Source of the DNA: Deltaproteobacteria bacterium HGW-Deltaproteobacteria-8
GTDB lineage: Bacteria; Desulfobacterota; Desulfovibrionia; Desulfovibrionales; Desulfovibrionaceae
Reading direction: 5' to 3'
DNA: 64,000 bases
NCBI GenBank assembly: GCA_002840405.1
Contig: PHAR01000004.1
Coordinates: forward strand, 346,239-410,238
Made by a program: the position numbers and the translations under genes. Below the pieces are notes generated by a model that was given only the letters and a program-made list of their open reading frames with translations, was not told where the DNA came from and ran no database searches. Of the stretch, positions 44,699 to 46,816 are shown piece after piece (position 1 is the stretch's first letter; every line of letters begins with the position of its first letter).

Positions 44699-45178
44699 CG
44701 CAGAAATGGTGCAACGCGCAGCGCCATCAACCTGCGCGACTGCGCGATTCCCCGGCTCCTTCGCCTCCTGCCCTGCCCCGCGCGCCCCGCCCCGCACCTG
44801 GCAGCCCAAGTTCTCGTCCTTCCCGTCCAGGCACCCGCCCTGGCGCTCAAGTCGCGCGCGCCACTCTCACTCTAAAGAAACTCAAGACTCATCCGATTCC
44901 GTCCAGAGCGCAGGGCATCGCGCAGAGAATCCTGCAAGGGCAGGTGCGCCTGGCAGCATCAACCGCTTCACTCACAGCTCCCTCCGTTCTGCCTCCTCCG
45001 ACATGACCTTTCAAAATCCTGTCAAGCATTTTCCACCTGCCTTTTACCGGCCAATTTTGCCCGATTTCGGCCATTCTCAACCATTCTCAGTCGGCGTCCC
45101 AAACCCATGCTATGCTCTCCGGCAAAACCCGGCCAACGCCGGGACAGTCCGGAAACCTACAACCAGGAGAGCTGCGCC

Positions 45179-45700
45179 ATGAGTAACGATGGGATTCAAC
45201 ATATCGGGGAGGACCAGCTCGTTTTCGGCCTGCCGAAGCACATGGAGGCTGTTGCCGGAGATGGCGAAAACACGTATTGGGAAATCGTTCCGGGCGAGAG
45301 CGCCTGCGCTTTATGCAAGTCGCTTCGGGGAATGCGGTTCGAGAAAAATCCTGTCCCGGTTCATCCGAACTGCGCGTGTGAGGTCATACGGGTGCCCCCG
45401 CCGGAGAGGCAGCCGAGGGTTGTGGAGTCCGGGCGGTTGCAAGGGTTTGGAGACAACGAGACACACAGATTCGAAGCAGGGCAGAAAATCACCATCACAT
45501 TTCTGAATTTGGGACCATTCCCAGCTGGTGTGTATATGCGTGTTGACCAGGCGGAGGAGAAGTTATCGGGCAAACTGGTGCCTGGGCTACCAGAGTCTTT
45601 CGAATTCTCAAAGTTCGGGGACACCCCTTTGACGTGGAAACTTTTCCTCCTCTACCAAGGGCTAGACGGTTCGACTATTGAATATAAAGTCCGAGGGTAA
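45179..45700 (+). CDS. Small protein with phage MuF/minor-head-like CxxC...HPNCxC motif and a beta-rich C-terminal domain
   Basis: 'YWEIVPGESACALCKSLRGMRFEKNPVPVHPNCACEVIRV'; Shine-Dalgarno AGGAGAG upstream of ATG 45179. Confidence 0.65.
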   Translation: MSNDGIQHIGEDQLVFGLPKHMEAVAGDGENTYWEIVPGESACALCKSLRGMRFEKNPVPVHPNCACEVIRVPPPERQPRVVESGRLQGFGDNETHRFEAGQKITITFLNLGPFPAGVYMRVDQAEEKLSGKLVPGLPESFEFSKFGDTPLTWKLFLLYQGLDGSTIEYKVRG

Positions 45701-45705
45701 CTAGA

Positions 45706-46152
45706 ATGAAACGCATCCTTATCTTCCTGATGTTGCTGGTCCCGACATCAGCACTTGCTGGACAGACGTACGACATCTCTTGTAAAAACGTCACGAACAT
45801 TCTTATAATTCGGGATACTGACCAGTATTTAAAACAACACACCCCACAGGGGTTTGTTCATATCGTAACTTTTTTTCTGAATCCACTTGCCAGGGACGCA
45901 TTCCAGAAGTTCGTCGATGCGTCCCGGCAATCCCAACGTTCTCGCGATGCCGAAGGAGCGCATCCCTATGTATCTCTCTCCATTACAGCAAATGGCGAAT
46001 CGCTGCAGAACGACATACTGGAGATCCGTGGATATAGCGGGACAAAGGTTTGCACATTCATCCTCCTCGAAGAGGATGCCCTCGCCGCCGCACGTTCGGT
46101 TTGCCCGGCGCTGGTGCCCGGCGAAATAATCAAGGTCGGCAAGTGGGAGTAG
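45706..46152 (+). CDS. Secreted small protein, SecD P1-head-like fold suspected (copy 1)
   Basis: Signal peptide MKRILIFLMLLVPTSALAG; 'YDISCKNV...PQGFVHI...LSITANGESLQNDILEIRG...EEDALAAARSVCPALVP'. Confidence 0.65.
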   Translation: MKRILIFLMLLVPTSALAGQTYDISCKNVTNILIIRDTDQYLKQHTPQGFVHIVTFFLNPLARDAFQKFVDASRQSQRSRDAEGAHPYVSLSITANGESLQNDILEIRGYSGTKVCTFILLEEDALAAARSVCPALVPGEIIKVGKWE

Positions 46153-46159
46153 CCGACCA

Positions 46160-46603
46160 ATGAAGGTACTCTGCTTTCTCCTCTTGCTGCTGGTCCCCAC
46201 CGTAGTGTGCGCCCAGGCGACCTACGACCTCTCCTGCGGCAACGTGGCCAGGATACGTATTTTTCGCCTCAAGGCCGCTGGTTGGCAAATAGATGCCCCA
46301 CAGGGTTACTTTCATATACTCGCCCTAGACCTGACACCGGATGCGGCTCAAGGGTTTGGAAAACGGCTCAAGACAGCACCCATGACACACTTCCAGTACA
46401 ATGGGATGAACTTAAGAAAAGAAAATCTAACCATTACTGCAAATGGTGGGTCTCTCAGGAATGACACCCCGGCAATGACAGGTTTTTCGGATCAAGGGAT
46501 CGACATCGCCATCATCCGAGAGCAGGACGCTTTCGACGCGGCGCGGGCGGTGTGCCCGACGCTGGTGCCCGCCAAGGTGCTCGAAGACGGTCAGTGGGAG
46601 TAG
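46160..46603 (+). CDS. Secreted small protein, paralog of 45706..46152 (copy 2)
   Basis: Signal peptide MKVLCFLLLLLVPTVVCAQ; 'YDLSCGNV...PQGYFHI...LTITANGGSLRND...EQDAFDAARAVCPTLVP'. Confidence 0.65.
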   Translation: MKVLCFLLLLLVPTVVCAQATYDLSCGNVARIRIFRLKAAGWQIDAPQGYFHILALDLTPDAAQGFGKRLKTAPMTHFQYNGMNLRKENLTITANGGSLRNDTPAMTGFSDQGIDIAIIREQDAFDAARAVCPTLVPAKVLEDGQWE

Positions 46604-46610
46604 TCGACGG

Positions 46611-46715
46611 ATGAAATCACTCTGCTTCCTCCTCCTGCTGCTGGTCCCGGCGACCGCATTTGCCCAATCCACCTACGACCTCTCCCGCGCCCGCGCGCCG
46701 GTGACTCTGGCGTAG
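46611..46715 (+). pseudogene. Truncated third copy of the secreted paralog
   Basis: MKSLCFLLLLLVPATAFAQSTYDLS matches the start of copies 1 and 2, then diverges to RARAPVTLA*. Confidence 0.65.
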
Positions 46716-46755
46716 CGCTTTGACGGGCAGTCCGAGTCAAGGACGGCGGTCCAAC

Positions 46756-46793
46756 AAAAAGGCCGGAGCCCCCTGCGGAACCCCGGCCTTTGT
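46756..46793. terminator. Terminator hairpin between the cassette and aor
   Basis: AAAAAGGCCGG...CCGGCCTTTGTC; minus strand ends GGCCTTTTTGTT. Confidence 0.7.
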
Positions 46794-46816
46794 CATTGCC
46801 TCAAACGGTTGCGGAT

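What the first reader, a model, noticed from the sequence alone, without database searches (positions are those of the whole stretch)
45107..46715. Accessory cassette: MuF-like CxxC/HPNCxC protein followed by a tandem array of secreted paralogs with a decaying copy
Sequence: four ORFs spaced 5-7 nt apart on one strand: a 173-aa protein (45179..45700), two paralogous signal-peptide proteins (45706..46152, 46160..46603) and a truncated third copy (46611..46715). The region is visibly more AT-rich than its surroundings and sits between RNase R-like and aor. Established: CxxC...HPNCxC is typical of the C-terminal part of phage Mu F / SPP1 gp7-like minor head proteins, which also occur in MuF-linked polymorphic toxins. 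Inference: a small effector-like protein with amplified periplasmic partners (immunity or inhibitor array) that evolves by tandem duplication and decay.
Basis: partly seen in the sequence, partly recalled or inferred. Interest (0 to 1): 0.72.

Follow-up and report, generated by a model that had tools for sequence, protein, structure and literature searches.

The report
Swappable bacterial toxin with immunity array
Next to a metabolic gene sits a small predicted antibacterial toxin gene, followed by the secreted protein that should neutralise it, a second such protein left over from an earlier toxin and a remnant of a third; sulfate-reducer relatives of this bacterium appear to swap the toxin tip and its antidote as one cassette.

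Summary
Four ORFs lie at the stated places in a low-GC block between an RNase-R-like gene and aor. The first gene (P1) has a conserved start (QHIGDDQLVxGMPKHM), the C-terminal CxxC/HPNCxC knuckle of phage MuF, and a ~90-residue all-beta C-terminal domain (CTD). It is not a decayed head gene. The N-terminal module occurs in 59 of 349 genomes of the order, fused to different CTDs: the window type, Ntox44, and a Tlde1/L,D-transpeptidase-like domain. The window-type CTD also sits at the toxin end of true Rhs proteins. In the loci examined a signal-peptide gene follows the window-type CTD almost directly. CTD and first secreted gene move as a unit. Between the window and its closest relative, CTD and P2 have dS 0.03 while flanking aor has dS 0.27. 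Against another species the two are replaced together while flanks stay similar. The second secreted gene is not a duplicate of the first: it is 95% identical to the first-position gene of another species. This is a polymorphic toxin with a cognate periplasmic immunity gene and orphan immunity genes, as described for Vibrio T6SS. New are the short MuF-knuckle toxin family, the CTD/immunity pair, and uncertainty about delivery (no T6SS in 36 genomes of the richest genus). Toxicity is untested.

The parts
45179..45427 (+). P1 N-terminal module: QHIGEDQLVFGLPKHM tag plus MuF-type CxxC...HPNCAC knuckle
   Evidence: PHROG 1522 head maturation protease E 4e-4; profile A3 in 59/349 genomes of the order
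45428..45700 (+). P1 C-terminal domain (CTD-A), predicted toxin domain, all-beta jelly-roll-like
   Evidence: AF2 block pLDDT 77-90; Foldseek to PPC/collagen-binding-type jelly rolls; same domain at the end of Rhs proteins
45706..46152 (+). P2, secreted predicted cognate immunity protein
   Evidence: signal peptide; homologue directly behind CTD-A in other loci; exchanged together with the CTD
46160..46603 (+). P3, secreted predicted orphan immunity protein
   Evidence: 95% identical to the first-position immunity protein of L005 but 38% to P2
46611..46715 (+). remnant of a third secreted copy: signal peptide plus about 8 residues
   Evidence: phmmer E 4.5e-6 to P3; relative L003 has copies 3 and 4 here
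44699..46816 (.). accessory-gene hotspot between RNB (RNase-R-like) and aor
   Evidence: empty site (about 90 nt) in G010/L216; other genes there in G004, G008, G014

Best explanation
P1 is a small stand-alone polymorphic toxin. Its conserved N-terminal tag and MuF-derived zinc-knuckle-like module act as address and linker, and its interchangeable beta-sandwich CTD is the toxic part, which works in the cell envelope of competing relatives. P2 is exported by Sec and neutralises this CTD in the periplasm. P3 and the third fragment are immunity genes kept from earlier resident toxins. New CTD plus immunity pairs enter by recombination between the conserved N-module or knuckle upstream and retained immunity genes downstream. 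Shown by sequence: the modular architecture, linkage, co-exchange and orphan identity. Inferred: toxicity, site of action, and neutralisation. Unknown: the export machine and the biochemical activity of the CTD.
For: One N-module carries different CTDs, including Ntox44 above the Pfam cut-off and a Tlde1/YkuD-like domain. The same knuckle plus CTD-A follows the Rhs core in L053, L176 and L177, again with a P2-type gene directly behind. CTD-A is followed almost directly by a signal-peptide gene in the loci I could read, even in a distant family where the N-terminal part is unrelated (L198). Co-exchange: window versus L003 dS is 0.03 for CTD and P2 against 0.27 for aor and 0.36 for the N-module. 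Window versus L004 dS is about 2 for CTD and P2 against 0.19 for the N-module and 0.27 for aor. In the genus, CTD distance tracks first-immunity distance (r 0.56, p 0.007) while N-module distance does not (r 0.19, p 0.18). Displaced CTD fragments with their own immunity gene occur in L053 and L162. 6 of 25 toxin genes but no first immunity gene are broken (p 0.02).
Against: No toxicity has been measured. The CTD has no evident conserved catalytic residues and resembles binding-type jelly rolls. No delivery system is identified: the T6SS marker is absent from all 36 genomes of the richest genus. P2 has no significant structural match. Some loci are MAGs, so a few broken frames may be errors.
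Confidence: 0.83

Rival explanations
1. P1 is a decayed phage head gene (the MuF C-terminus) and the secreted genes are unrelated hitchhikers.
For: The knuckle matches phage minor head and head maturation proteins; the region is AT-rich.
Against: P1 is conserved as a full stand-alone gene in many species. Its tag is not found in viral contigs: only partial matches over the knuckle at 30-47% identity. No head genes lie next to it. The CTD is attached to Rhs proteins as well and its partner is constant.
Confidence: 0.03
2. The pair is a secreted non-toxic system: the CTD is a carbohydrate- or protein-binding domain and P2 a periplasmic partner or inhibitor with a housekeeping or surface role.
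For: The fold resembles PPC and carbohydrate-binding jelly rolls; there are no evident catalytic residues; L198 is a surface-type multidomain protein.
Against: CTD-A shares its N-module with Ntox44 and Tlde1-like toxins and takes the toxin position of Rhs. Cassette swapping and orphan partner arrays are typical of conflict systems.
Confidence: 0.1
3. The secreted array arose by local tandem duplication for dose or diversification, as first proposed, and not by displacement of older toxins.
For: Real local duplicates exist in other genera: L052 87%, L171 74%, L181 95%.
Against: In the window's genus 14 of 14 later copies are closer to another species' gene; P3 nearly equals a first-position gene elsewhere.
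Confidence: 0.12

Closest known systems
Immunity gene arrays of Vibrio cholerae T6SS clusters (Kirchberger et al. 2017, PMC5361080)
   Same: A new effector-immunity pair displaces the old effector, the old immunity gene stays behind, and array members are closer to genes of other strains than to each other.
   Different: Here the toxin is a stand-alone gene with a MuF-type knuckle, not in a secretion cluster, and the immunity genes form one secreted family.
MuF polymorphic toxins of temperate phages (Jamet et al. 2017, PMC5576092; Zhang et al. 2012, PMC3482391)
   Same: A MuF-related module precedes variable toxin domains, with a small gene downstream.
   Different: Only the terminal knuckle is present, with no complete MuF domain and no head or packaging genes around it.
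Rhs toxins with C-terminal toxin/immunity exchange (e.g. Serratia Rhs NADases, PMC10539506)
   Same: The same knuckle plus CTD-A plus immunity cassette is found behind an Rhs core in L053, L176 and L177.
   Different: P1 itself has no YD repeats and no PAAR domain.
Homogeneous polyimmunity loci (Zhang et al. 2012, PMC3482391)
   Same: Tandem paralogues of one immunity family, and fused two-domain versions (L004, L046, L047, L048).
   Different: They sit behind an active-looking toxin gene and are secreted; P2 and P3 match no Pfam or NCBIfam family.

Membership tests
Polymorphic toxin system | Conserved N-terminal part with interchangeable C-terminal toxin domains | tested here: met
Polymorphic toxin system | Adjacent specific immunity gene exchanged with the toxin domain | tested here: met
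   (linkage and co-exchange; protection itself not tested)
Polymorphic toxin system | Displaced orphan cassettes or immunity genes | tested here: met
   L053 and L162 CTD fragments; P3
Polymorphic toxin system | Toxic activity | not testable with these tools
   needs expression assays
MuF toxin | Complete MuF domain | tested here: not met
   no PF04233 hit in P1; homologues match only about positions 46-111 of 112, below cut-off
MuF toxin | Location in a phage head/packaging module | tested here: not met
   flanked by RNB and aor in a chromosomal hotspot
Rhs toxin | RHS/YD repeat core | tested here: not met
   absent in P1; present in relatives L053 and L176
T6SS effector | T6SS present in carriers | tested here: not met
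   TssC in 0/36 genomes of genus g5; absent in near-complete carriers G001, G012, G013, G018, G027, G034, G061, but present in the window genome
eCIS cargo | eCIS genes (Pvc16_N) | tested here: inconclusive
   0/36, but the control genomes were silent too
Immunity gene array | Array members resemble cognate immunity genes of other strains rather than local paralogues | tested here: met
SecDF P1-head-like immunity fold | Profile match to PF22599 | tested here: inconclusive
   L198 partner E 6.5e-6, 26.5 bits against cut-off 27; L068 0.024; none for P2/P3; SecDF only at E 4-7 in Foldseek

The most novel reading that the evidence does not exclude
A previously undescribed class of short antibacterial toxins in sulfate reducers in which a MuF-derived knuckle with a 20-residue tag replaces the large delivery scaffold (Rhs, VgrG or a full MuF protein), exported by a machine that is not T6SS, with a non-enzymatic jelly-roll toxin neutralised by a SecD-head-like periplasmic protein.
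Probability: 0.3. Interest if true: 0.78.

Novelty: new variant of a known kind. Interest (0 to 1): 0.56.

Why it matters
It adds a toxin/immunity family in a bacterial family where polymorphic toxins are hardly described in the open papers searched, shows that a phage MuF knuckle serves as a shared linker for both stand-alone and Rhs toxins, and offers a compact natural test of immunity-gene retention: P3 should protect against a toxin that the strain no longer carries. It also poses a clear question of delivery, because the carriers richest in these toxins lack T6SS.

Tried and rejected
Pfam, PHROGs, NCBIfam and PDB sequence searches gave no family for P2/P3 and only knuckle matches for P1. 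P2 structure search gave nothing significant. Viral-contig searches found mainly phage-type MuF knuckle matches for P1 and no relative of P2. Phage and plasmid records gave only weak capsid-protein matches. T6SS was tested as the delivery machine and rejected as obligatory. eCIS was tested, but the control was silent. Structure predictions used only window sequences and loci from the search for related loci, because loci of the genome search are not named among the allowed inputs; the P1 alignment therefore had only 4 rows.

Full report
Observation. Searches confirm four + strand ORFs with gaps of 5, 7 and 7 nt. P1 is 45179-45700 (173 aa), P2 45706-46152, P3 46160-46603 and the fragment 46611-46715. 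The three intact genes have GC 50-59% and GC3 0.57-0.69, against GC3 0.94 in the neighbouring RNB and aor genes. P1 has no signal peptide by eye; P2, P3 and the fragment start with one.

Architecture of P1. The first ~75 residues hold a tag (QHIGDDQLVxGMPKHM in relatives) and a CxxCxxxxGxxF...HPNCxC knuckle. The knuckle matches PHROG 1522 head maturation protease at E 4e-4. Relatives match the C-terminal half of Phage_Mu_F, below the Pfam cut-off. AlphaFold2 with 4 sequences gives a disordered N-terminus and a confident all-beta C-terminal domain (block pLDDT 77-90). Foldseek places it near jelly rolls of the pre-peptidase C-terminal/collagen-binding type (1nqj, target TM 0.62; best E 5.8e-4 for 3afg). 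Conserved CTD residues are mostly G, W and Y, with no obvious catalytic set, so an enzymatic mechanism is not indicated.

The N-module is a carrier. A profile of it (A3) finds 59 of 349 genomes of the order, all but one in the same family; the exception and some weaker hits match the knuckle only. The attached domains differ: CTD-A as in the window; divergent CTD-A; Ntox44 above its Pfam cut-off in L055, L058, L070 and L072; and a Tlde1/YkuD-like domain in L173 and L174 (Tlde1 E 4.5e-5, below its cut-off). L062 (HH_signal 0.0018) looks by eye like an M15-type peptidase. The knuckle also sits directly behind the Rhs core, in front of CTD-A in L053, L176 and L177 and in front of other domains in L182, L185, L187, L188, L190 and L191 (some of these by eye). 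CTD-A therefore occupies the toxin position.

The partner. In the CTD-A loci I could read, a signal-peptide gene starts between about -40 and +8 nt from the end of the toxin gene, usually with a significant match to the P2/P3 profile. In some divergent g5 loci the match is by signal peptide and the S-C-x-x-V pattern only, and part of that output (about L061 to L166) was cut. In a distant family of the same phylum (L198) a multidomain surface-type protein ends in CTD-A and is followed after 12 nt by a secreted 120-aa protein that matches SecDF_P1_head (E 6.5e-6, just under the cut-off). P2 itself has a medium-confidence alpha/beta model with no significant PDB match, so the SecD-head reading is a lead, not a result. 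Lone members of the secreted family without a nearby CTD-A also occur (L065-L067, L069).

Co-exchange. Between the window and L003, dS is 0.27 for aor and 0.36 for the N-module but 0.03 for both CTD and P2. Identity rises to 95-100% from about 45348 to 46550. Between the window and L004 the upstream region and N-module are 83-95% identical, CTD and P2 are replaced (dS about 2), and identity returns to 97-98% within P3. In eight loci of the genus, CTD distance correlates with first-immunity distance (Mantel r 0.56, p 0.007), while the N-module does not (r 0.19, p 0.18). Across 21 loci both correlate, as expected from phylogeny.

Orphan immunity. P3 is 95% identical to the first-position gene of L005 and 38% to P2. 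All 14 non-first copies in the genus are closer to a gene of another species than to any neighbour. Part of this could be vertical inheritance of an old array, but the change of position (second in window, L003 and L004; first in L005) fits stepwise displacement. This is the pattern and model described for Vibrio T6SS arrays (PMC5361080). Displaced CTD fragments with their own immunity gene in L053 and L162 add to it. Six of 25 toxin genes with a P2-type partner are broken (L005, L045, L051, L054, L169, L171) and no first immunity gene is (Fisher p 0.02); assembly errors may contribute.

Site. aor is present in 14 of 15 genomes of the genus. The RNB-aor gap is empty in G010, holds a glycosyltransferase-like gene in G008 and other DNA in G004 and G014, and holds the cassette in the window, G005, G009, G012 and G013, with or without that gene. 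In G007 the cassette also lies next to aor, but the contig ends before RNB.

Delivery. The window genome has a T6SS, but 7 near-complete carriers and all 36 genomes of the genus richest in the N-module have no TssC. T6SS is therefore not the general route. The eCIS test was uninformative because its controls were silent.

Caveats. L003, L004 and L005 are the same contigs as G002, G012 and G011 and were counted once. Homologues were collected by similarity, so frequencies are not population estimates. No function was measured.

Noticed in passing
window 44699-46816: The RNB-aor interval is an accessory-gene hotspot in the genus: empty in G010, a glycosyltransferase-like gene alone in G008, unrelated AT-rich DNA in G004 and G014.
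   Followed up: partly
L055, L058 (downstream of the Ntox44 genes): Stand-alone Ntox44 genes with the same N-module are followed by a conserved small membrane protein, a likely immunity protein of a different type.
   Followed up: partly
L173, L174: N-module proteins with a Tlde1/L,D-transpeptidase-like domain, followed by a signal-peptide gene.
   Followed up: partly
L062, L070, L180, L181, L183, L061, L068, L074: The knuckle also follows other short N-terminal tags such as (T/S)EEFYxxLFA, AMTTEEFxxKEVF and LTxxDxxxYxKxPLxxWxWxA, which may be alternative address signals.
   Followed up: no
L185, L187, L188, L190, L191, L053:4943-6898: A family of Rhs proteins with the knuckle and other uncharacterised C-terminal domains, some followed by secreted proteins.
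   Followed up: no
G000:C8:537138-555257: The window's genome has a T6SS marker gene (TssC) plus a second, divergent VipB-like match about 17 kb away.
   Followed up: no
L048:16617-16826: An inverted copy of a CTD-A piece at a contig end, probably an assembly artefact.
   Followed up: no
L003 832-1812: A run of N joins a MacB-like reading frame to the end of the glycosyltransferase-like gene, so the contig may be chimeric.
   Followed up: no
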